Part shown: positions 8,833 through 37,542 of the stretch, piece by piece | Layout: every line of letters begins with the position of its first letter | How positions within the stretch are numbered: the first letter of the stretch is position 1 | Virus record (IMG/VR): IMGVR_UViG_3300043331_002300 | Location: 1 to 38,730 of that record | Origin: a virus | Strand: one strand, 5' to 3' | DNA: 38,730 nt | Made by a program: the position numbers and the translations under genes | The notes under the pieces: generated by a model | Told to the model about the DNA's origin: nothing | What the model saw: the letters and a program-made list of their open reading frames with translations, nothing else | Database searches by the model: none

Positions 8833-9393
8833 TCACACCCCCGCCAGCAGCGGCCGCACCGCGTCGGCCAAATCCACCGCCCGGGCCGACGCGGCCGCCG
8901 TCCCCCGCCCGAGCTTCGCCAACCGCTCGAGGAAGCGCCTCGCGCCGGTATCCCCTTCTGGCCCCACGTGCACACAGGAGATTGAGTCGACGAACTCCCG
9001 GGCCACCTCCAGCGCGAAGTCGGGGTTGTCCGGCAGCCCGTCCGAGATGACGACGAACGCCACCCCCGTCCCGTCGACCTGTTTGGCGAAGCGCAGCGCC
9101 CCGGCCAGGTCGGTGTTCGAGTCCGGCTCGGGGGGCACCCCGCCGGGGATCCAGCGGTGCCACCCGGAGAAGCAGAGGAGGGCCAGCTTGCCGGGGTGCT
9201 CCGCCTGGAGCCGGGCCAGCTCCTCCCGGGCGACCTCCACGCGGCGGCGGCCCCCTCGGCTATCGCGCTCATCCATGCTGGCCGAGACGTCCACGATGCA
9301 GACGTGAGTCACCCCCAGCCAGGCGGCGGCGAGGCCCTCGCTCCGCTGCCGGGCGACCTGGGCCAGGGACCCGGCGACGATCGGCTCACTCAT
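8833..9393 (-). CDS. von Willebrand factor A domain protein
   Basis: A cytoplasmic vWA protein of 186 residues; such domains bind partners through a metal-ion-dependent adhesion site. The MIDAS is complete: D35-x-S37-x-S39 in VDVSASMDE, T94 in SNTDL and D118 in ISDGLPD. No signal peptide or membrane segment is seen. ATG 9393 forms a TGATG junction with the upstream transglycosylase stop, and GGGGAGG lies nine bases ahead. The partner is unknown; vWA proteins often pair with MoxR-type AAA ATPases, which are absent here. Its place directly before the nuclease and methyltransferase raises the possibility that all three act together. Confidence 0.85.
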   Translation of the reverse strand: MSEPIVAGSLAQVARQRSEGLAAAWLGVTHVCIVDVSASMDERDSRGGRRRVEVAREELARLQAEHPGKLALLCFSGWHRWIPGGVPPEPDSNTDLAGALRFAKQVDGTGVAFVVISDGLPDNPDFALEVAREFVDSISCVHVGPEGDTGARRFLERLAKLGRGTAAASARAVDLADAVRPLLAGV

Positions 9394-9794: not shown

Positions 9795-10071
9795 GGCCGT
9801 ACCTCCGGCGCCGATACTCGTCGACCATCCGCCGCTCCCGCTCGATCACGGCCTCCGTCGCCCCCAGCCGGCGGAGCCGTTCCTCGTGCCGGCGCTGGAG
9901 CGTCTCCCGCGAGAAGACCGAGCTGGCCTGCTCCGCCAGGAGCCTCGTCGTCTCCGCTGCCAGGGCCTCGTCGAAGCACCAGGGGCACAGCCCCGGGCAG
10001 GGATCATCCCGCGTCTCGTAGCCCTCGGCCCCGCATTCCCGGCAGGTGATGTGCAACAACTGCTCAGGCAC
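9787..10071 (-). CDS. Small zinc-ribbon protein with C-terminal helix
   Basis: Ninety-four residues beginning VPEQLLHITCRECG. Two CxxC pairs (CREC and CPWC, with a further C in between) should bind one zinc ion. The second half is a basic, charged helical region ending YRRRRYGRE. This suggests nucleic-acid or protein binding. GTG 10071 is chosen because GGAGG lies seven bases upstream; a TTG six codons earlier is weaker. It overlaps the J-domain gene by eight bases. No specific function can be given. Confidence 0.65.
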   Translation of the reverse strand: MPEQLLHITCRECGAEGYETRDDPCPGLCPWCFDEALAAETTRLLAEQASSVFSRETLQRRHEERLRRLGATEAVIERERRMVDEYRRRRYGRE

Positions 10072-10969
10072 GGACCCACCTCCGCTCAAAGGCGTCGGCC
10101 CCCGCCGGCCAGCTGGTGACGAGCACCTCGCCGGCGGGGTTCACGATGTCCTCGAACTGCAGGATCTCTCGGACCCAGAACTGCCCCAGCCGGCGCTCCC
10201 CCCGGGCCAGCACCAGCCCGCAGGGCAGGGGCGCCCGGTACTGGATCGGCGCCCGGACGGCGGCCGCCGCGTCCGCCCAGGTTCCGTCCGGGCCCCGAGT
10301 GACGCCGGCCTCGAGCCGCAGCCCTACGTCGTAGCGCTTGCGGGTGGCCGGGTCGATCAGCACGTCGTAGGCCCGCTTGACCCGGATGAAGCGCTCGGCG
10401 GCGTCCGGCTCCTTGCACACGTCCGGGTGGGTGGCCCGGGCCAGCCGGCGGAACGAGGCCCGGAGCTCATCCTCGCTGGCGCCCTGGCCGACGCACAGCA
10501 CGGCGTAGAGCGTCTGGGGCGCGTTCGGCCGGCCGTCTCCGTCCGCCTTCGAACGCTCTGGCGCCCCGGGCTCGAAGTAGTTCCGGAGGGCCTCGACCGG
10601 GAAGACCACGTTCCAGCCCCCGTCGGCCCAGCCCGACGCGGTGACGCTCCCGTCGGGGCGCTCCCGGGCGGCGCCGACGTACTCGATCGTCAGCAGCGCC
10701 ACCTCGAGCGAGGGAGGCGCCGGGACCGAGACGGTCGGGAGCTGGGGCCGGACGCCGAGGTAGCGCTCGCACAGGTCGGCGACGTTCATCGCCTGCGCGG
10801 GATCGATCAGCCAGGCCCGGCGTTGCCCGTCCCAGCGCCGGGTGTCGGCCGGGAGGTGGCGTTTCAGGGCCTCGACGAGCCCCTGGTGGTAGGTCGAGTA
10901 CAGGACGAGCGTCCCGTCCCGCTCGGCGACCAGCCGGGCCGACGGGGGCACGGTCCGAGTCGCGCGCAT
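10064..10969 (-). CDS. J-domain (DnaJ-like) protein
   Basis: A co-chaperone-like protein of 301 residues. The J domain spans about 152-214 with the invariant HPD at 181-183 (RATHPDVCK), so it should stimulate host DnaK. There is no G/F linker, zinc centre or DnaJ C-terminal domain. The N-terminal 70 residues (TLVLYSTYHQGLVEALK, then RRWDGQRRAWLID) resemble the small HARP-like repeat seen in some phage and SMARCAL1-type proteins; this is a pattern-level match. ATG 10969 has AGGAGG seven bases upstream and forms TGATG with the upstream gene. Lambda and other phages need DnaJ/DnaK for replication, so recruitment of host chaperone to replication or recombination is a reasonable inference. Confidence 0.82.
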   Translation of the reverse strand: MRATRTVPPSARLVAERDGTLVLYSTYHQGLVEALKRHLPADTRRWDGQRRAWLIDPAQAMNVADLCERYLGVRPQLPTVSVPAPPSLEVALLTIEYVGAARERPDGSVTASGWADGGWNVVFPVEALRNYFEPGAPERSKADGDGRPNAPQTLYAVLCVGQGASEDELRASFRRLARATHPDVCKEPDAAERFIRVKRAYDVLIDPATRKRYDVGLRLEAGVTRGPDGTWADAAAAVRAPIQYRAPLPCGLVLARGERRLGQFWVREILQFEDIVNPAGEVLVTSWPAGADAFERRWVRA

Positions 10970-11205
10970 CACGCCACCTCCTGCAGGTCCGTCTCGGAGC
11001 ACAGCGGGAGCTGCAGGGCGGCCGACTCGTAGATCGTCACCAGGAGCCGTTCGACCTGCGCCGGCGTGAGCGAGCACCCGGCGCTACAGCGGGCGGGCTC
11101 GTCCACCCACACGCTCCGCCTTGGCCCCAGCGCCGACGGCCAGGTCGAGGCCTGCACGTGTACGACGCCGCCGGTACAGCGGGGACAGGCGGCCCAGATC
11201 TTCAC
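10969..11205 (-). CDS. Small zinc-binding protein
   Basis: A 78-residue protein starting at GTG 11205 in a GTGA overlap with the previous stop. CPRC near the start (residues 7-10) and C-x3-C further on (ARCSAGC) supply four cysteines for a zinc ribbon. A helical end follows (TPAQVERLLVTIYESAAL). It belongs to a run of four small zinc-ribbon or cysteine-rich proteins in this operon. The function is unknown; DNA- or RNA-polymerase-binding factors are the usual guess. Confidence 0.62.
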   Translation of the reverse strand: MKIWAACPRCTGGVVHVQASTWPSALGPRRSVWVDEPARCSAGCSLTPAQVERLLVTIYESAALQLPLCSETDLQEVA

Positions 11206-16287: not shown

Positions 16288-16698
16288 GTGGCCGACGAGC
16301 TGGCCCGGTCGCGGGGAGGAGACGGTCATGAAGCGGACGCCGGTTTCAGGATCCGGGGCTTCCCGCGCCTGGGGGGAGGCCGGAGCCGGACGGGGGGCTG
16401 GGCTAGCCCGGACCCGGACTGGTGGCGGAAGACCCCGGCGGGGCTCTTCGCCCGGGCCGTGCTCCTGATCCGGCTCGGACGCGGGGTCGACCAGCGCGAC
16501 CTCGCGATCCGGTCGGGGGTGTCCACGGGGCAGCTGAGCAAGATCGAGAACGCGACCTACCCGACCTGGCGCAACGCCGCCGACCGGATCGCCCGGGGGC
16601 TGGACTTCCCGAGCGCCCTGCTGCTGCTGTACGCCTTCTACGGGCAGGACCTCCCGGCGACGGAGGAGGCGCTGGGGCTGGAGGAGCCGGAAGGGTGA
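16288..16698 (+). CDS. XRE-family repressor (CI-like, no peptidase domain)
   Basis: The probable lysogeny repressor (136 residues). The helix-turn-helix spans about 55-110: VLLIRLGRGVDQRDLAIRSG, then the recognition helix STGQLSKIENATYP and RNAADRIARGLDF, which is the classic XRE pattern. No LexA-type self-cleaving peptidase domain follows, so induction would not use RecA-driven autocleavage. The first 45 residues are Gly/Arg-rich and poorly conserved looking; GTG 16288, preceded by a G-rich site, is the best start I see in frame, but a later start is possible. It is the only plus-strand gene in this part and is convergent with the integrase. Confidence 0.75.
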   Translation: MADELARSRGGDGHEADAGFRIRGFPRLGGGRSRTGGWASPDPDWWRKTPAGLFARAVLLIRLGRGVDQRDLAIRSGVSTGQLSKIENATYPTWRNAADRIARGLDFPSALLLLYAFYGQDLPATEEALGLEEPEG

Positions 16699-19285: not shown

Positions 19286-19297
19286 TATAATTGAGGT
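19286..19297 (+). promoter_or_regulatory. Rightward -10 TATAAT six bases from ATG (leaderless type)
   Basis: A perfect TATAAT lies at 19286-19291, six bases before ATG 19298, so transcription would begin at or next to the start codon. No strong -35 is seen at 16-18 bases. The same -10/six-base/ATG spacing occurs at 34313. Leaderless genes of this form are common in actinobacteria and Deinococcus. Confidence 0.55.
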
Positions 19298-19447
19298 ATG
19301 AGCGAGCGCACGGCGGAGCAGGAGCAGCGGGCGGTCGAGTGCCGGCTGTATGTCGACGGCAAGGTGATCGAATTCCGGATCCCCGGTCCTCTGGTGGCGC
19401 TGCGACCGGCGCCGGCGAAGGCCCGTAAGGGCAAGGAGTCGAGGTGA
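19298..19447 (+). CDS. Small hypothetical protein, 49 residues
   Basis: First gene of the plus-strand cluster: starts MSERTAEQEQRAVECRLYV, continues with VDGKVIEFRIPGPLVAL and ends in a basic tail (KARKGKESR). The short beta-rich middle and charged ends suggest a small binding protein. Start ATG 19298 is fixed by the adjacent TATAAT. The stop overlaps the next gene in GTGA if the latter begins at 19444. Function unknown. Confidence 0.6.
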   Translation: MSERTAEQEQRAVECRLYVDGKVIEFRIPGPLVALRPAPAKARKGKESR

Positions 19448-30146: not shown

Positions 30147-31181
30147 CTACCCGACGCGCTGGCCGAACCCCCGTCTGATGAGCGCGTCCATGGGGGACTT
30201 CCCGTCGCGGGGGCGGGGGCCCGAGGAGCGCCGGTCGGCGCCCAGCTCGGGCTCGTCGTCCTCGGAGGAGCCGTCGGGGGTTACGGGCTCGCCCCGCATC
30301 GAGGCGAGCACCTGCTTGCGGAAGGCCGGGGAGCGGAGGAGGCGCTTCGCCTCGTTGGCCTTGATGCGCTGCACGGCGTGCTCGGTGACGTACTTGCGCC
30401 CGTCCATGCTGGGGGGCATCGCCTCCAGCAGAGCCGTGCGCTCCGCCTCCGGCAGGGCCAGCAGCAACGGGTCGAGGCTGACCCGGTCGTAGGCCTTGAC
30501 CATGTTGGCCAGGAAGTCGTCCTGGGCCTGCATGGCGTCGACCTGGTCGCGCAGCCGGGCGGCCGCGTAGGCGTCCGTCTCCCGGACGGTCTGCTCCTGG
30601 GCGATCAGCGCCTGGCGCTGCTGGAGTCGGGTCTGCTGGCCCCGTTCGGCGAGCTGGCGCTGGGCGACCGCCTGGCGGCGGGTGAGCTCCTCCTCGACCA
30701 GGCGCTTGACCGGCCCGTCGACTCCGGCCAGCGCGGCCAGGTCGTCCGGGGCCAGGGCCTTCAGCTGCCCGATGGCCCGCTTGGCCTGGGGGGAGAGTTC
30801 TACCCGGGCGACCGGCGGGGCGTCGGTCTGGGCCCCGGGGGGTGGAGCGTCCGAGGGCCGCTGCGGCTCTCCGGCGGACGGAGCGGCGGTTGCCTCGTCG
30901 GGGGCCTCGGGCTCGGCCTCGGGGTCGACCTCGGCGGGTTCCTCGAGCCGGCCGTGCCCCCGCACGATCCGGTCGAGGAAGCGGCCCATGCCCTCCCCGG
31001 GGCGGCCGTCGGCGCCGGACGGGGCGCGCCGGGGCTCCCGCGGAGCGGGGGCCGGCAGCGGGGCCTCTTCGGACGCACGATCGGAAGGCGACGGCGGCGG
31101 GGCGGGATCGCCGGGGCGCCACGTCGGCGGGGGGTTGGCCTCCACCCACTCGGCGCCCGCGGGCCGCGCGTCCGTCGTCAC
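30147..31181 (-). CDS. Scaffolding protein-like, coiled-coil
   Basis: Directs capsid assembly and is normally removed before packaging (344 residues). The first ~125 residues are disordered and Pro/Ala/Glu-rich. A long coiled coil (about 125-240) follows, with KRLVEEELTRRQAVAQRQLAE and Gln-rich stretches, and the basic end (ADRRSSGPRPRDGKSP, DALIRRGFGQR) suits capsid binding. It lies directly upstream of the capsid gene. GTG 31181 has AGGA 11 bases ahead. A head-maturation protease domain is not visible. Confidence 0.78.
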   Translation of the reverse strand: MTTDARPAGAEWVEANPPPTWRPGDPAPPPSPSDRASEEAPLPAPAPREPRRAPSGADGRPGEGMGRFLDRIVRGHGRLEEPAEVDPEAEPEAPDEATAAPSAGEPQRPSDAPPPGAQTDAPPVARVELSPQAKRAIGQLKALAPDDLAALAGVDGPVKRLVEEELTRRQAVAQRQLAERGQQTRLQQRQALIAQEQTVRETDAYAAARLRDQVDAMQAQDDFLANMVKAYDRVSLDPLLLALPEAERTALLEAMPPSMDGRKYVTEHAVQRIKANEAKRLLRSPAFRKQVLASMRGEPVTPDGSSEDDEPELGADRRSSGPRPRDGKSPMDALIRRGFGQRVG

Positions 31182-31199
31182 GGCGCTCAGTGTCCTACC

Positions 31200-31231
31200 G
31201 GCCGCCCCCGTCCGTCAAGACGGGGGCGGCC
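31200..31231. terminator. Perfect 13-bp GC hairpin upstream of scaffold gene
   Basis: GGCCGCCCCCGTC (31200-31212) and GACGGGGGCGGCC (31219-31231) pair over a six-base loop. There is no U-tract in either direction. It lies in the leader of the scaffold/capsid transcript and may be a terminator of upstream transcription or a 5' stabilising stem. Confidence 0.5.
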
Positions 31232-31244
31232 ACGTAGCAGTGCG

Positions 31245-31267
31245 TGACACACGTCAGTGTGTGTCAA
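31245..31267. promoter_or_regulatory. Palindrome overlapping TTGACA, possible late promoter/operator
   Basis: TGACACAC (31245-31252) and GTGTGTCA (31259-31266) form a perfect inverted repeat with a six-base spacer. On the minus strand the sequence TTGACA (31262-31267) is an exact -35, but no good -10 follows at 16-18 bases, so an activator or a non-standard sigma factor would be needed. It is ahead of scaffold and capsid. Confidence 0.45.
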
Positions 31268-31349: not shown

Positions 31350-33164
31350 TTAGCCCGGGATCCGCCAGTCCGGCAGCCACGTCGACCCGGTCGGCCCCAA
31401 GTAGGTGCGGGCGTACCCGGTGCCTAAATCGACCGCTTCCCGGCCCGGGGTGGGGAGCACTCCGGCGGGGGCCTGGGGCACGACCCCGGTGTAGGGCACC
31501 CGGGCGAGGAGGGCCTCCATGTCCGGCATCCCCGGCAGGGCGGGGGCGGCGTAGCCGCTGCGCATGGCCTGGGCCGGGGCGATCGCCGCCAGGGCCCGCT
31601 CGCGGGCGGCGGCCGCGATCTGGTCGGGCGACGGCATGACCGCCACGATGTGCTGGGGCGCGAACGCGGCCCCGGTGTAGCCCGGCCCCCGGGGGGCGGC
31701 CATCCGCTCCTCGGCCGTGCGCCCGCCGGCGCGGTTGGCCATCGCCGCCACGTTGGCCCCGTACGCTCTCGCGAACTCCGGCGATCGAGCGCTGGGGAAG
31801 GTGGAGATGAGTTGGTCGCGAGCCCGCTCGCCGTACTGCTGGGCCAGCTGCTCGCGCTGGGCGTTCGCCTGCTGGACCCGGATGTCCTCGAGGCGGTTGC
31901 GCTCCTCGACCTGCTGGCGCTCCTGACGCTGGGCCTCCTCGGCGGTCGCCCGCAGCCCGGCCAGGGGCCCGGTGACGTTGGTCTGGAACCAGGAGCCGAA
32001 CTGGGACGAGGCCTGCTCGGCGGAGAGCGCCCCCTGCTCCTGGAGGCCTTTCAGGCGGTCGAGCTCCTGCTGGGCCCGGCCCTGGAGGCGGGTCGTCTCC
32101 TGCTGCAGGGCGGCGTAGGCGTTGGCCGGGAGCGTCCCCCGGCGGGCCTCCTCGAGCTTGAGCCGGTCGAGCTCCTCCTGCCGGGCGCGCCCCTCCGGGG
32201 TCAAGACGTCGGTGGAGAACACCTGCCGGCCGGTCAGGGGGTCGATCCCCACCACCCGCCCATCGACCGTCTGGGTCGTGGGGACGCTCGGCAGGCCCTG
32301 GGCCGGCTCCCAGGTGGCGCCCCCGTCCTTGGAGATGTAGCTGTTCCCGCCCCGCTGCTGGACCTGGACGGCCCGGCCCACGCCGCCGATGGGGGTGGCG
32401 CTCGTCCCGTCCTCGGACAGCGTGTACCACTGCCCGTCCTGCCCCTGGATCCGGGTCTGGGTGGCGGGGAGGCCGCTCGTCGGCTGCCAGGTGCGCCCCT
32501 GGTCGGTCGAGAAGTACGTCCGCCCGTTGCGCTGCTCGACCTGGACGGCGGGGCCGACCCCGGCCAGGGGGGTGGCCGTCTTGCCGTCCGCCGAGAGCGT
32601 GTAGACCTGGCCGTTGGCGGTGATCCGCTCCCCGGCGCCGAGGTCCATCGGCTCGACCCCGGCGGTGCCCTTGGTCGCGTCCAGGGTCTTGCCCCCGACC
32701 CCATCGGCCGTCCAGTGGACGCGGTACTGGCGCCCCCCGTACGTCTCGATCGTCTCGATCGGCGACCCCTTGGCCGGGTGCTGGGTCCGGGCCTGCTCGG
32801 TGGCGACCTGGTTGTTGACCTTGTTGATGTCGTCGGCCGCGGCGTCGACCTTCTTCTGGGCCTCGTCGCGCGTGGCGGAGGAGTACTTCGGGTCGTTGGC
32901 GATGCCCCGCCAGTAGTCGCGGTCCTGGGTGTAGCCGTCCAGGTCGTTCAGCAGGCGCTCGGTGTTGTTCGAGGGGTTGGCGTAGGGCGCGGGCCGGCGG
33001 ACCTGGGGCGGGATCGACGTGGTCGCGCCGGTGCCCGCCTCCTCGGGAGGCGGCGCCGGCTCCGGCGCCGAGGCCGTGCCGGCGTCGGGGGCGCTCACGG
33101 CCCCCCGCGCCATCAGTTGCCGGATCCAGTCCGCGACCGTCAACGCGCCGGGCACCATGGCCAT
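31350..33164 (-). CDS. Internal virion/ejection-type protein with Asp-box repeats
   Basis: A 604-residue structural protein. It begins with a disordered Pro/Ala region, then helical QKKVDAAADDINKVNN. Two tandem repeats of about 59 residues (185-243 and 244-302) each carry an Asp-box: STDQGRTW (219-226) and SKDGGATW (278-285), with shared flanks such as LSADGKTATPLAGVG and LSEDGTSATPIGGVG. A long Gln/Glu/Arg-rich coiled coil (about 320-450) and a Pro/Ala-rich end follow. Large helical proteins in this place are typical podovirus ejection proteins. ATG 33164 has GGAGG nine bases upstream. Two Asp boxes alone do not make a sialidase. Confidence 0.65.
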   Translation of the reverse strand: MAMVPGALTVADWIRQLMARGAVSAPDAGTASAPEPAPPPEEAGTGATTSIPPQVRRPAPYANPSNNTERLLNDLDGYTQDRDYWRGIANDPKYSSATRDEAQKKVDAAADDINKVNNQVATEQARTQHPAKGSPIETIETYGGRQYRVHWTADGVGGKTLDATKGTAGVEPMDLGAGERITANGQVYTLSADGKTATPLAGVGPAVQVEQRNGRTYFSTDQGRTWQPTSGLPATQTRIQGQDGQWYTLSEDGTSATPIGGVGRAVQVQQRGGNSYISKDGGATWEPAQGLPSVPTTQTVDGRVVGIDPLTGRQVFSTDVLTPEGRARQEELDRLKLEEARRGTLPANAYAALQQETTRLQGRAQQELDRLKGLQEQGALSAEQASSQFGSWFQTNVTGPLAGLRATAEEAQRQERQQVEERNRLEDIRVQQANAQREQLAQQYGERARDQLISTFPSARSPEFARAYGANVAAMANRAGGRTAEERMAAPRGPGYTGAAFAPQHIVAVMPSPDQIAAAARERALAAIAPAQAMRSGYAAPALPGMPDMEALLARVPYTGVVPQAPAGVLPTPGREAVDLGTGYARTYLGPTGSTWLPDWRIPG

Positions 33165-33167
33165 CGT

Positions 33168-34262
33168 CTAGTTCCTCCCTCCCGCGCTGGCGTACGCGCG
33201 GAACCACTCGGGGGCGTCGTTCCCGGCTCGTGGCGCCGCCGGCGGGCGCGCCGCCGCGCCGGCCGTGATGTCGACGAAGTGCCCCGGCCGGTCGAACTTC
33301 TCCGCGTCCAGGTGGGGGCCCGTCGTGTTCCCCGAGACGCCCACGCGACCCAGCGGCTGCCCCGCCTCCACCCGCTGGCCGGGGCGGACGAGGAGGCCCG
33401 GTTGCTGGTGGGAGAGGCGGTAGAAGTAGCCGTTGTCGCCCTGGAGCAGCACCATCCCACCCCAGCCGGAGTTGAGGTTGCGGTCGGTCTCGTTCGGGGC
33501 GTCGAAGGTCTGCACCACCGTGCCCGTCGTGGGGGCCACCACGGGGTCGCCGTAACTCGCGGTCAGGTCGGCGCCCACGTTGCTCGAGGGCAGGGGGACG
33601 GTCGCCCCGGCGCTGCGGGACTGCCGGCCCCCGAAGGGGTTGTTGACCTGGCCCCACCGGTGGCCGGCCACCGGCCAGACCTCCTCCCCGCCGCGGGTGG
33701 CCGCTCCGGGGGCAGACGGTGCCCCTCCGGCGGCGGTATAGGCGCGGTACCACGCCGGCGCGTCGGCCCCGGGTTGGGCGTCCTGGGTGACACCAGGGGC
33801 ACGCGCGGCGGGGGTCGCCGATCGCCCCTGGGTGAGCAGCGCGTTGACGCTGCGGGCGTAGTCCCCGGGGTCGGCGGGGCGCTGGGCCAGGGCCGCCCAC
33901 GTCCCCCGGTCGGCGGTCGGGCTCCGCTGCCGGATGGCCTGGAACTCGGCGATCGCCCGCTCGGTGGCCGCGGCCACGTCCCGGCGGCTCTCGACCGGGA
34001 TCCCGGCCCCCCGGCCCCGGGAGTGCTCCTGGAACACGCCGTAGCTCTGGCCCTGGTCGCCGACGGCCGACGGGTCGAGCGAGCTCTCCTGCCGGGCGGT
34101 GGCCACCAACAGGTCGGGGTCGGCGAAGCCCCGCGCGGCCGCCACCCGGCGGATGGTGTCCTCGACGCCCCCGGGGCCGGCCCCGGGAGGGGTCGGGGGT
34201 CGCGGGCTCCCCCCGGTCGCGGCCAGGTAGCCGCGCAGCCAGTCGGGGACGACTTCAGCCAT
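33168..34262 (-). CDS. Virion lysin: transglycosylase plus degenerate M23 domain
   Basis: Probably a particle-borne wall-degrading protein (364 residues). The transglycosylase-like domain (about 35-140) has E59 in ARQESSLDPSA and QGQSYGVFQEHSRGRG. The M23 domain (about 200-335) is recognisable from NNPFGGR, GDPVVAP, VRPGQRVEAGQPLGRVG and TGPHLDAEKF. The expected HxGxD is NVGAD (N228, D232) and HLH is HLD (H317, D319), so two zinc/catalytic histidines are missing and activity there is doubtful. A W-x-R-x-Y motif occurs three times (P6-G18, P169-G180, P351-G362). ATG 34262 begins beside a CRP-like palindrome. Confidence 0.78.
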   Translation of the reverse strand: MAEVVPDWLRGYLAATGGSPRPPTPPGAGPGGVEDTIRRVAAARGFADPDLLVATARQESSLDPSAVGDQGQSYGVFQEHSRGRGAGIPVESRRDVAAATERAIAEFQAIRQRSPTADRGTWAALAQRPADPGDYARSVNALLTQGRSATPAARAPGVTQDAQPGADAPAWYRAYTAAGGAPSAPGAATRGGEEVWPVAGHRWGQVNNPFGGRQSRSAGATVPLPSSNVGADLTASYGDPVVAPTTGTVVQTFDAPNETDRNLNSGWGGMVLLQGDNGYFYRLSHQQPGLLVRPGQRVEAGQPLGRVGVSGNTTGPHLDAEKFDRPGHFVDITAGAAARPPAAPRAGNDAPEWFRAYASAGGRN

Positions 34263-34275
34263 CGGGGCCCCCGAG

Positions 34276-34324
34276 TGTGACGGGCGTCACAGCGCCCCCC
34301 GCCCCCGGCGCGGATAATCCGCTC
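34276..34324 (+). promoter_or_regulatory. CRP-like site and leaderless promoter
   Basis: TGTGA-N6-TCACA (34276-34291) matches the CRP consensus exactly. GATAAT (34313-34318) lies six bases before ATG 34325. If transcription starts at that ATG, the palindrome centre (34283.5) is at -41.5, the class II activator position. It also lies 14-29 bases upstream of the divergent lysin start. Confidence 0.55.
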
Positions 34325-34549
34325 ATGACCGACCGTGCCCGCCACGGCCCCACCCGCCGCCTGCTCGAGGGTCTGGGCGTCGTGCTGGTGAGCCCCCTGA
34401 TCCTCCTCGTCCTCCTCGGCGGGTTCGCCGAGATGGGGCTGGGCACCCCCGGCGTCTGGCTGGCCGGGGCCGTGTACCTCGTCATCCTCGGGCTCATCCT
34501 GACCAGCCTCCGGGGCGTCGCCCGCGACTGGTGGCGGTCGCTCGGCTGA
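34325..34549 (+). CDS. Small two-helix membrane protein on the opposite strand
   Basis: A 74-residue protein with a basic start (TDRARHGPTRRLLEG), two membrane helices (LGVVLVSPLILLVLLGGF and GVWLAGAVYLVILGLILTS) and a basic end (RGVARDWWRSLG). ATG 34325 is fixed by the leaderless promoter just ahead. It breaks into a minus-strand virion operon and has its own control, like a gene expressed from the prophage. It could be a holin, an exclusion protein or a host-membrane modifier; the sequence does not decide. Confidence 0.65.
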   Translation: MTDRARHGPTRRLLEGLGVVLVSPLILLVLLGGFAEMGLGTPGVWLAGAVYLVILGLILTSLRGVARDWWRSLG

Positions 34550-34562
34550 GCCACCCACGGCG

Positions 34563-37481
34563 TCATCGCGTGATCCCGTACTTGCGGTCGATGGCCGCCC
34601 GGCGCTCCTTGAGCTCGTCGGCGCGCTCCGGACGCCGGCGGGTCAGCTCGTACTGGCGGGGCCAGTCCCGCTCGAAGCGGGCCTCCCCGGCGTCGTCCCC
34701 GTACCGCTGCTTGTAGGCCGCGAGCTGGCGCCGGCCGTCCCGGACGGCGGCGTTCCCCCGCCGGATCTGGTCGGGCGTCCCCTGCACGGCGTCGAACTGG
34801 GGGACGGCGGCGTACTCGAAGTCGGCCCGCCCCTTGGCGTCGCGGGCCACCTGGGCGCCCGCCTGGATGTCGGCCAGGTCGTAGGCGTACAGCAGCCGGG
34901 AGCGCAAGAGCGCCGCCTTCTCCGCGTCGGTCGCCCGCTGGTAGACCGGGCTGGCCAGGAGCTCCCGGGTGGCCCGCCCCACCTCCGAGCCGTAGGCCCG
35001 CTGGAGGACGCGGCGCTGGGCGGGCGTCTGCGTCGCCCCGGCGTAGGCCTCCCGGCGGGCGTAGTCCCGCACCCCCACCCGCGCCGCGGTGAGGAGGGCG
35101 TCCCGCTCCGCCTGGGTCGTGGCCCGCCGGTAGGCCGGGCTCGCCAGGGCCTCCTCCCGCAGGGCGCGGTTGAGCCGGTCGACCTCCGTCCGCCCGGGCG
35201 AGGGCTCGGGGGGCGTCGTGCCGCCCAGGCGCTCCAGCGGCGTCCCGCTGGCCACCAGGGGCTGCCCCGTGGTGGGGTCGATGCGGGCCGGCAGGCGCTC
35301 GCGCAGGCCCGGGATCCGCTCCTGGGCCCGCTCCAACGGGTTGCCCCGCTCGACCTCCCGCAGGTAGGGGTCGGTCGCCCGGGCCAGGGGCGCCGCCGCG
35401 GCCAGGGGACGCCCGACCAGCCCCCCCAGCGTCTCGGCCGAGGCCTCCAAGAACTGCCCCCGCCCGGCCCGCTCGGCGAAGCGGGTGAGGTCGTCCAACC
35501 AGGAGTCGCCCAGCGCCGTGGCGGCGACTTCGTTGATCAGGGCCTTCCCGCCGGCGAAGCCGGCCTGCACGCCCGTGCCCCCCCTGGCGCTCGCACGGCG
35601 GTAGGCGTCGACGGCGTTGGCCACCAGGTCCATCTGAGTCCCGACCGCGCCCAGGGCCCGGTTCGGGAACCAGAAGACGCGCGAGGTGCCCCGCGGCCCG
35701 GCCCCGGGCACCTCCACCTTCCAGCTGTTGCGCCGCCACAGCGGGTCGCCGGCGGCGTTGCGCTGCCCCTCCAGGGCGGCACGCTCGTTCGGGTCGTCCG
35801 GGCCGTCGCCGGTGATGGCCCCGTGGGCGGCCTGGTAGCCCAGCGCCAGGGTGGTGCCCAGCGCGGCCCCGATCCGCCCCCGAGCCTGGGCCACGATCGC
35901 CGGGTCACGGGCGAGGAGGTCTGGCACGTGGACGGCCCCGCCGGTGGTCAGGTCGAGGGCCTGGCGCAGGATCCGCTCCGGGACGCGCACGTAGGGGGCC
36001 AGGGCGTAGGCGAAGCCGCCCCAGAGGCGATCGGGCAGCGGGGCGTCCGGGTCGGCCAGCTTCGCCCGGGCCCCGCTGAAGAGCTGGCCCAGGGCGGAGG
36101 GCTTCCCGGCGTAGGTGGCCTCCTCGGCGTAGCGCCGGGCGAAGTCGTCGAGCCCGGTCCCGTCGAGGCCGATCTGTTCGCCCAGCGCCCGCCCGCCGGC
36201 CTCGTTGAGGCTCCAGATGGCCCGGTCGGTCGCCGCGTTGGCCCGGGTCGCCCACGTCCCCAGGACGCGCCCCAGCCCGGGGCCCTCGGACAGCCCACCG
36301 GAGAGGGCCAGCTCCTGGGTCGTCCCGCCCAGGGCGGTCCCGGGGGCCTGCGTGCCCTCGAAGAAGACCCGCCGGCCCTCCCGCAAGGCCTCGGGGAGGG
36401 CCCCGGCCACGCCCCGGGCGTAGCGCGCGGCCCCGGCCGGGCCCCCCGCGCCGACCGCCTCGGCCACGTTGAGCCCGGTCTGAGCCAGCCCGCTGGTGAG
36501 GTTGGTGAACAGGCTCATGGGCCCGGCCAGGCTGTAGTTGTTGACGACCTCGAGCACGCTCCCCAGGGCCCTCGACCCCCGAGCGGCCTCCGGCCCGGCC
36601 GCTACGGCGCCCTGTAAGGCCTCGAGCTGCGCGGCGACCTCCGGCGGCGGCTCCCGCCCGACCGCCCGCGCCCGGCGCACCGCCTCCCGCTCGGCGGGCC
36701 CGAGCCCTCGAGCGACTCGCCCCGCCGCCGTCACCGCCTCCTCGGCCGGGGGCCCGGCCAGGCCCCCCACCTGCTCGAAGGCGCTCCCCGCCGCGCCGCG
36801 GGCCTGCTCGGGGGTCATCCCCATGGAGGTGCCGAAGGCCTCGAAGGGCCGGCCCACGACGTCGCCGATGGCCCCGGTGAGGCCCCGGGCCTGCTCGGCC
36901 AGCGGGGAGGTCTGCTCGAACTCGGCCCGAGGCGCGGCCCCGGCGGCCGCGGCCCGGCCCAGGGTGTCCCACGGCGTGGGGTGGGGGCCCCCCGACTCGC
37001 GCCAGGCCTGGAAGCCCTCCCCCAGCCCGCTGATCTGCTCCTGGGCCTGGGACGCCCAGTCCCCTGCCCCCTCGGCCGCCTCGCCCACGCCGGTAGCCGG
37101 CCGGGTAACGGCCCCACCCAGACGGGCGCCGGCCACGTCCAGGCCTCCCCGCACGGCCGTGCCCATATCGCTGGCCGTCTGCCCCACGCCCCGGGCGAGG
37201 CCCCCGGCGAGCTCGCCCAGGCCGCCGGTGACCGGCGCCGGGGCCCGGGACGGGGGCTCCTCGGCGGGCGCGGCCTCGGGCTCGAGGGGCGGCGGGGGTG
37301 GCGGGGACGGCGGCGGGGGGACGAAGGCCCGGGCCTGGTCGGCGAGCTCGTGGAGGCGGCGCTGAGCGTCCAGGGCCCAGGAGGCGTGGGTCAGGTCGTC
37401 GACCAGGGGCTGCGTCGTCTCCGTCCACTTGCGAGTCGCCCAGTCGCGGAAGCGGTCGAGCGGGATCGGGGGCAACGGCAT
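34563..37481 (-). CDS. Very large internal virion (ejection-type) protein
   Basis: A 972-residue structural protein, mostly helical. Starts MPLPPIPLDRFRDW, has a proline run (PPPPSPPPPPPLEP) near 55-70, glycine/alanine-rich amphipathic stretches in the middle that may insert in membranes (GLARGVGQTASDMGTAVRGG), a central region with SLAGPMSLFTNLTSGLAQTG, and charged helices to the end (ELKERRAAIDRKYGITR). Composition, size and location between virion genes match podovirus proteins ejected with DNA. ATG 37481 is preferred; the frame is open to 37517. No enzyme motif is recognised. Confidence 0.65.
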   Translation of the reverse strand: MPLPPIPLDRFRDWATRKWTETTQPLVDDLTHASWALDAQRRLHELADQARAFVPPPPSPPPPPPLEPEAAPAEEPPSRAPAPVTGGLGELAGGLARGVGQTASDMGTAVRGGLDVAGARLGGAVTRPATGVGEAAEGAGDWASQAQEQISGLGEGFQAWRESGGPHPTPWDTLGRAAAAGAAPRAEFEQTSPLAEQARGLTGAIGDVVGRPFEAFGTSMGMTPEQARGAAGSAFEQVGGLAGPPAEEAVTAAGRVARGLGPAEREAVRRARAVGREPPPEVAAQLEALQGAVAAGPEAARGSRALGSVLEVVNNYSLAGPMSLFTNLTSGLAQTGLNVAEAVGAGGPAGAARYARGVAGALPEALREGRRVFFEGTQAPGTALGGTTQELALSGGLSEGPGLGRVLGTWATRANAATDRAIWSLNEAGGRALGEQIGLDGTGLDDFARRYAEEATYAGKPSALGQLFSGARAKLADPDAPLPDRLWGGFAYALAPYVRVPERILRQALDLTTGGAVHVPDLLARDPAIVAQARGRIGAALGTTLALGYQAAHGAITGDGPDDPNERAALEGQRNAAGDPLWRRNSWKVEVPGAGPRGTSRVFWFPNRALGAVGTQMDLVANAVDAYRRASARGGTGVQAGFAGGKALINEVAATALGDSWLDDLTRFAERAGRGQFLEASAETLGGLVGRPLAAAAPLARATDPYLREVERGNPLERAQERIPGLRERLPARIDPTTGQPLVASGTPLERLGGTTPPEPSPGRTEVDRLNRALREEALASPAYRRATTQAERDALLTAARVGVRDYARREAYAGATQTPAQRRVLQRAYGSEVGRATRELLASPVYQRATDAEKAALLRSRLLYAYDLADIQAGAQVARDAKGRADFEYAAVPQFDAVQGTPDQIRRGNAAVRDGRRQLAAYKQRYGDDAGEARFERDWPRQYELTRRRPERADELKERRAAIDRKYGITR

Positions 37482-37512
37482 CTCAACGGCCCCCCGGTAC
37501 ACTCGAAGCGCA

Positions 37513-37542
37513 GCCACCAGGGGGCTCTACCCCCCTGGTGGC
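37513..37542. terminator. 12-bp perfect hairpin between virion gene and HNH gene
   Basis: GCCACCAGGGGG (37513-37524) and CCCCCTGGTGGC (37531-37542) pair across a six-base loop, upstream of both the minus-strand virion gene and the plus-strand HNH gene. There is no U-tract. It may mark one edge of the inserted HNH gene. Confidence 0.45.

What the first reader, a model, noticed from the sequence alone, without database searches (positions are those of the whole stretch)
34276..34327. CRP-consensus site exactly at -41.5 of a leaderless promoter
TGTGA-N6-TCACA sits 41.5 bases from ATG 34325, and GATAAT sits six bases before that ATG. If the transcript is leaderless, this is a textbook class II activator geometry driving a small membrane protein that runs against the virion operon. 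This would connect host cAMP or redox state (CRP/FNR-family regulator) to a prophage membrane gene. The palindrome also lies next to the divergent lysin start.
Basis: partly seen in the sequence, partly recalled or inferred. Interest (0 to 1): 0.62.

Follow-up and report, generated by a model that had tools for sequence, protein, structure and literature searches.

The report
CRP-type promoter for prophage membrane gene
Inside the virion-gene block of an uncultivated temperate phage lies a small membrane-protein gene, read in the opposite direction, whose promoter has the layout of one switched on by a bacterial cAMP-receptor-type activator; the same layout occurs at the same spot in three diverged relatives, which suggests that the phage lets a host regulator control this gene.

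Summary
TGTGACGGGCGTCACA (34276-34291) is centred exactly 41.5 bases upstream of ATG 34325, with GATAAT at -12 to -7. By chance about 0.005 such sites are expected in the window.

Four diverged virus records carry a short antisense hydrophobic ORF between the same two virion genes. In all four a TGTGA-N6-TCACA-like site (0, 1, 1 or 2 mismatches) lies 21 or 22 bases before a -10 hexamer. Simulated gaps give this in at most 4 of 30,000 trials each. Two relatives that lack the insert lack the site. In 396 Actinomycetota genomes the full leaderless pattern occurs 6 times, against 0 for the reversed pattern and 0 with the spacing lengthened by 10 bases.

Leaderless output fits the window and one relative; the other two keep the promoter but have short leaders. 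The site is CRP-type, not FNR-type, so the redox half of the reading has no support. Most likely it is a class II promoter, activated by a host CRP-family protein, driving a moron-like two-helix membrane protein. Host, regulator, transcription start and protein function are unknown.

The parts
34276..34291 (.). CRP-type operator TGTGACGGGCGTCACA, centred at -41.5
   Evidence: conserved in L005, L006, L016
34292..34312 (+). 21-bp spacer; no recognisable -35 hexamer
   Evidence: spacer 21, 21 and 22 in L016, L006 and L005
34313..34318 (+). -10 element GATAAT (5 of 6 to TATAAT)
   Evidence: CATACT, GATACT, TACACT in relatives
34325..34549 (+). 74-aa two-helix membrane protein gene, predicted leaderless, antisense to the virion operon
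   Evidence: homologue in L005; codon-position and frame test; model
33168..34262 (-). divergent neighbour: M23 peptidase with weak SLT match, probably a virion-associated hydrolase
34563..37517 (-). convergent neighbour: 984-aa virion-type protein; its stop lies 13 nt from the end of the small ORF

Best explanation
34276-34324 is an activator-dependent promoter of class II geometry. A host CRP-family dimer (most likely a CRP/GlxR-type cAMP receptor) binds TGTGACGGGCGTCACA at -41.5, makes up for the missing -35 contact and recruits RNA polymerase to GATAAT. Transcription starts at or next to A34325, giving a leaderless mRNA for a 74-aa two-helix membrane protein. The unit is a moron-like insert, antisense within the virion operon, that would be expressed from the prophage according to host state. 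Shown here: sequence, geometry, conservation at the same place, absence from uninserted relatives, coding signal of the ORF. Inferred: identity of the activator, cAMP dependence, transcription start, expression in the lysogen, and any benefit such as superinfection exclusion or changed host physiology.
For: Exact consensus site at exactly -41.5 with a -10 at -12 to -7; chance about 0.005 for the site alone. Same architecture in the same gap of L016, L005 and L006, with spacers 21, 22 and 21; simulated gaps reach the observed quality in 0, 2 and 4 of 30,000 trials, and 0 of 30,000 for the window. No insert and no site in L003 and L021. No such match with 1 mismatch or fewer in 890 kb of prokaryote loci. 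In 396 Actinomycetota genomes the leaderless pattern occurs 6 times, against 0 reversed and 0 with the spacing lengthened by 10; three of the six are the same promoter ahead of orthologous pyridine-nucleotide oxidoreductases. Consensus matches that of mycobacterial Crp proteins (PMC7739888). ORF is coding and has an L005 homologue.
Against: No expression or binding data. The host is unknown, so the presence of a CRP cannot be checked. L006 has 2 mismatches to the consensus. Leaders differ: only window and L016 are leaderless. Products of L006 and L016 are not recognisable homologues. No terminator was found. The statistics were run after the pattern was seen.
Confidence: 0.68

Rival explanations
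1. A real activator promoter, but the activator is not a cAMP-receptor protein: another CRP/FNR-superfamily member or an unrelated dimeric activator with a similar half-site.
For: Geometry and conservation do not identify the protein; the host is unknown.
Against: All ten consensus positions of CRP are matched in the window, and the site resembles those of actinobacterial Crp proteins (PMC7739888; PMC4117774).
Confidence: 0.15
2. The site is mainly a repressor or roadblock site: a protein bound there lowers transcription or translation of the hydrolase and the rest of the virion operon, and the antisense promoter is secondary.
For: The site lies 13-23 nt upstream of the hydrolase start in all four loci, inside an operon.
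Against: The distance to the antisense -10 is nearly fixed (21-22) whereas the distance to the hydrolase start varies; uninserted relatives L003 and L021 do without it.
Confidence: 0.07
3. The palindrome is an operator of the phage's own Xre-like repressor (16288-16698).
For: The phage encodes an HTH protein next to a serine recombinase.
Against: No second copy with fewer than 2 mismatches in the window, including the region around the repressor; the repressor was not found in the relatives that keep the site (a search without a positive control).
Confidence: 0.05
4. The palindrome acts as an RNA hairpin in the leader of the hydrolase mRNA.
For: 6-bp stem with 4-nt loop possible in the window; folding of the L006 stretch is better than most shuffles (z -2.3).
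Against: The hairpin is not the predicted fold in the window, L005 or L016 and folding there is no better than shuffles; arms shrink to about 4 bp in L005 and L016.
Confidence: 0.03
5. Chance: a palindrome and a hexamer picked out of a long sequence.
Against: The same architecture recurs in the same gap of three relatives whose flanking 984-aa-type protein is only 31-60% identical.
Confidence: 0.02

Closest known systems
Class II CRP-dependent promoters (E. coli paradigm; position -41.5 from general knowledge)
   Same: TGTGA-N6-TCACA site centred at -41.5 relative to the predicted start, a -10 element, no good -35
   Different: In a phage, with the start codon at +1 in the window and L016; activation untested
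Leaderless genes of Actinobacteria (M. tuberculosis: PMC3898074)
   Same: -10 hexamer ending 6 nt before the start codon, no Shine-Dalgarno
   Different: Paired with an upstream activator site; two of four relatives have leaders
Phage morons (general knowledge)
   Same: Extra gene with its own promoter between two genes that abut in relatives
   Different: Promoter apparently under a global host activator; no terminator recognised; expression in the lysogen untested
Host regulators reading into phage genes (LexA in phage GIL01, PMC4551915, abstract; HapR/CRP acting on CTXphi through the sRNA CisR, PMC13250501)
   Same: A host regulator controls a phage function
   Different: There LexA represses the lytic programme or CRP acts through a host sRNA; here a CRP-type site is on the phage itself and would activate one small gene

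Membership tests
Class II CRP-dependent promoter | site matching TGTGA-N6-TCACA | tested here: met
   exact in the window; 1, 1 and 2 mismatches in L005, L016, L006
Class II CRP-dependent promoter | site centred near -41.5, overlapping the -35 region | tested here: inconclusive
   met relative to the start predicted from the -10 and ATG; the real start is not mapped
Class II CRP-dependent promoter | -10 element present and no strong -35 | tested here: met
   GATAAT; no sigma-70-type promoter called
Class II CRP-dependent promoter | binding and activation by CRP | not testable with these tools
   needs gel shift and reporter assays
FNR-type promoter | TTGAT-N4-ATCAA site (general knowledge) | tested here: not met
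   the site is TGTGACGGGCGTCACA
Leaderless gene | -10 hexamer 5-7 nt before the start codon, no Shine-Dalgarno | tested here: met
   window and L016; L005 and L006 not leaderless
Leaderless gene | transcript 5' end at the start codon | not testable with these tools
   needs 5'-end mapping
Moron | inserted between two genes that are adjacent in relatives | tested here: met
   L003: flanking genes 1 nt apart; L021 appears the same
Moron | own promoter and terminator | tested here: inconclusive
   promoter by sequence; no terminator-like site found at 33000-36000
Moron | expressed from the prophage | not testable with these tools
   needs RNA from a lysogen

The most novel reading that the evidence does not exclude
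A lineage of uncultivated temperate phages keeps a CRP-driven antisense promoter inside the virion operon as a two-way switch: when host cAMP-CRP is active it makes a small membrane protein in the lysogen and, by convergent transcription into the 984-aa virion gene, damps virion expression. The promoter is kept while the encoded protein changes.
Probability: 0.15. Interest if true: 0.75.

Novelty: new variant of a known kind. Interest (0 to 1): 0.57.

Why it matters
Temperate phages are known to read host damage signals through LexA. A conserved promoter that appears to read a global metabolic regulator from inside the virion gene block would be a direct route from host carbon or energy state to a prophage gene. 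The prediction is sharp (one operator, one -10, one start base) and can be tested with a small reporter construct.

Tried and rejected
Direct searches for the small protein in viral contigs and isolated phages found nothing; relatives were reached through the flanking genes instead. No convincing family hit for the antisense products in the libraries scanned (window and L005: Pfam, PHROGs, NCBIfam, PADLOC; L006: PHROGs, NCBIfam, PADLOC; L016: NCBIfam, PADLOC). A pattern hit for the exact palindrome in an unrelated viral contig (L002) sits in a long perfect hairpin and a different context. A perfect site in the L004 record (TGTGATCCTCCTCACA) overlaps a Shine-Dalgarno and start codon elsewhere and is not comparable. 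A search for related prophages in 396 Actinomycetota genomes found none, and the single hit among 301 genomes of the phylum of a Chloroflexi genome was set aside because no other gene of this phage lies near it. Host assignment failed: capsid relatives are mostly actinobacteriophages at about 40% identity, and a capsid scan of genomes gave mainly Actinomycetota with some Chloroflexota and others. The RNA-hairpin reading was tested and not favoured. No fold search was made with the two-helix model, because such a simple fold would match by chance.

Full report
WHAT IS THERE. The window is a 38,730-base virus record, 73% GC, with terminase, major head protein, primase, a serine recombinase and an Xre-like HTH protein, hence probably a temperate phage. 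The reported palindrome is exact: TGTGACGGGCGTCACA at 34276-34291, centre 34283.5. GATAAT is at 34313-34318 and ATG at 34325; the centre is at -41.5 if transcription starts at the A of the ATG, and GATAAT then spans -12 to -7. No sigma-70-type promoter with a -35 is called there. No Shine-Dalgarno precedes this ATG, whereas many other genes of the phage have one. The exact site is expected about 0.005 times per window and is the only one with fewer than 2 mismatches.

IS THE SMALL GENE REAL. The 74-aa ORF has GC by codon position 0.76/0.51/0.96, like the phage's other genes. A homologue (51% identity over 51 aa) lies in the same place and orientation in L005. Over the aligned codons, differences are most frequent at third positions, and identity in this frame is 52% against 30-34% in the other five. 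Two hydrophobic stretches and a two-helix model (pLDDT 74, alignment of only two sequences) indicate a small membrane protein. No family library names it.

COMPARISON. Relatives were found through the flanking proteins. Four loci carry an antisense insert between the 984-aa-type virion gene and the hydrolase gene: window, L005, L006 and L016. On the antisense strand they read: window TGTGACGGGCGTCACA-21-GATAAT-6-ATG; L016 TGTGATGGGCGTCACC-21-CATACT-6-ATG; L005 TGTGACGCACCTCACC-22-GATACT-22-ATG; L006 AGTGACGGGGGCCACA-21-TACACT, then about 70 nt to the ATG. In simulated gaps of the same composition, a match this good on the antisense strand with spacer 20-22 occurred in 0, 0, 2 and 4 of 30,000 trials for window, L016, L005 and L006. 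These tests were made after the pattern was seen; the sites in the relatives were first noticed by eye. L003 has the flanking genes 1 nt apart, with no insert and no site; L021 appears the same. L004 and L015 are cut off before the gap. In whole-record searches, exact TGTGA-N6-TCAC occurs only at this gap in the L005 and L016 records.

PROMOTER VERSUS PRODUCT. L005's product is a homologue; those of L006 (63 aa) and L016 (26 aa) are short and hydrophobic but not recognisably homologous. The cassette phages form one clade in the tree of the neighbouring 604-aa protein (100/100) but not in the tree of the 984-aa protein, where L016 groups with loci that lack the insert or whose state is unknown. 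The promoter therefore seems to have persisted while a neighbour was exchanged and the product diverged. This inference rests on seven sequences.

BACKGROUND AND HOST CONTROL. In 890 kb around 55 prokaryote capsid loci, no site with 1 mismatch or fewer plus a -10 at spacing 20-23 was found; 15 with 2 mismatches were. In 396 genomes of the phylum of a Solirubrobacteraceae genome (Actinomycetota), TGTGA-N6-TCAC-N21-23-NATAMT-N5-7-RTG was found 6 times, against none for the reversed pattern and none when the spacing was lengthened by 10. Three of the six are the same promoter in front of orthologous pyridine-nucleotide oxidoreductases. So this exact arrangement exists in bacterial chromosomes at places consistent with function, though it is rare.

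LEADERLESS. The window and L016 have the ATG at the predicted +1; L005 and L006 have leaders with Shine-Dalgarno-like GAGG or GGAGG. Another gene of the window, starting at 31181 on the minus strand, has TTGACG-N18-GACACT-N7-GTG, matched in L006 by TTGACA-N18-GACACT-N6-GTG, so leaderless starts may be in wider use in this lineage. In M. tuberculosis 26% of genes with a primary start site are leaderless, with a TANNNT -10 and no -35 consensus (PMC3898074).

WHICH REGULATOR. The consensus is that of E. coli CRP (PMC4005916) and of both M. smegmatis Crp proteins (PMC7739888); CRP of M. tuberculosis binds a similar motif in vivo (PMC4117774). FNR-type sites differ, so the redox reading is dropped. 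The host is unknown: capsid relatives are mainly actinobacteriophages at about 40% identity, and no related prophage was found in the genomes searched. An operator of the phage's own repressor is less likely because no second copy exists in the window and the repressor was not found in relatives; that last search had no positive control.

RNA OR HYDROLASE-SIDE FUNCTION. The site is 13-23 nt upstream of the hydrolase start in all four loci, but that distance varies while the distance to the antisense -10 hardly does. The hairpin weakens in L005 and L016, and RNA folding is no better than shuffles except in L006. A side effect on virion-operon transcription is not excluded.

VERDICT. Observation confirmed. 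The reading is well supported on promoter geometry, partly on leaderless transcription, and not on redox control. Most likely mechanism: a host CRP-family protein activates a class II promoter for a moron-like membrane gene. What the membrane protein does is open; superinfection exclusion or altered host physiology are guesses from known prophage-expressed proteins, not results. Each component (class II CRP promoters, leaderless genes, morons) is known; the combination, conserved in this phage lineage, was not found in the literature searched, which covers open-licence papers only.

Noticed in passing
window 31181-31220 (minus strand): Likely leaderless sigma-70-type promoter for the 344-aa gene: TTGACG-N18-GACACT-N7-GTG, matched in L006 near 8841-8877 (TTGACA-N18-GACACT-N6-GTG).
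   Followed up: partly
window 31245-31266 (minus strand): Inverted repeat TGACACAC-ACTGAC-GTGTGTCA in the gap upstream of that promoter; no clear counterpart in L006.
   Followed up: partly
window 19286-19300 (+): TATAAT-TGAGGT-ATG, another leaderless-like arrangement.
   Followed up: no
window 10064-11077 (minus strand): 337-aa protein with a DnaJ domain (E 9e-18) in the phage.
   Followed up: no
L006 5464-5655 (minus strand): A different antisense two-helix ORF (63 aa) occupies the same gap in a phage whose capsid is 95% identical to the window's.
   Followed up: partly
L002 1298-1332: The exact palindrome recurs in an unrelated viral contig within a long perfect hairpin (GGGCTACTGTGACGGGCGTCACAGTAGCCC), perhaps a terminator.
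   Followed up: no
L092 and L093 (one Actinomycetota genome): Two DUF222/HNH-type genes with a CRP-like site at class II spacing and a GAAC-N4-GTTC element, resembling an SOS box, overlapping the -10.
   Followed up: no
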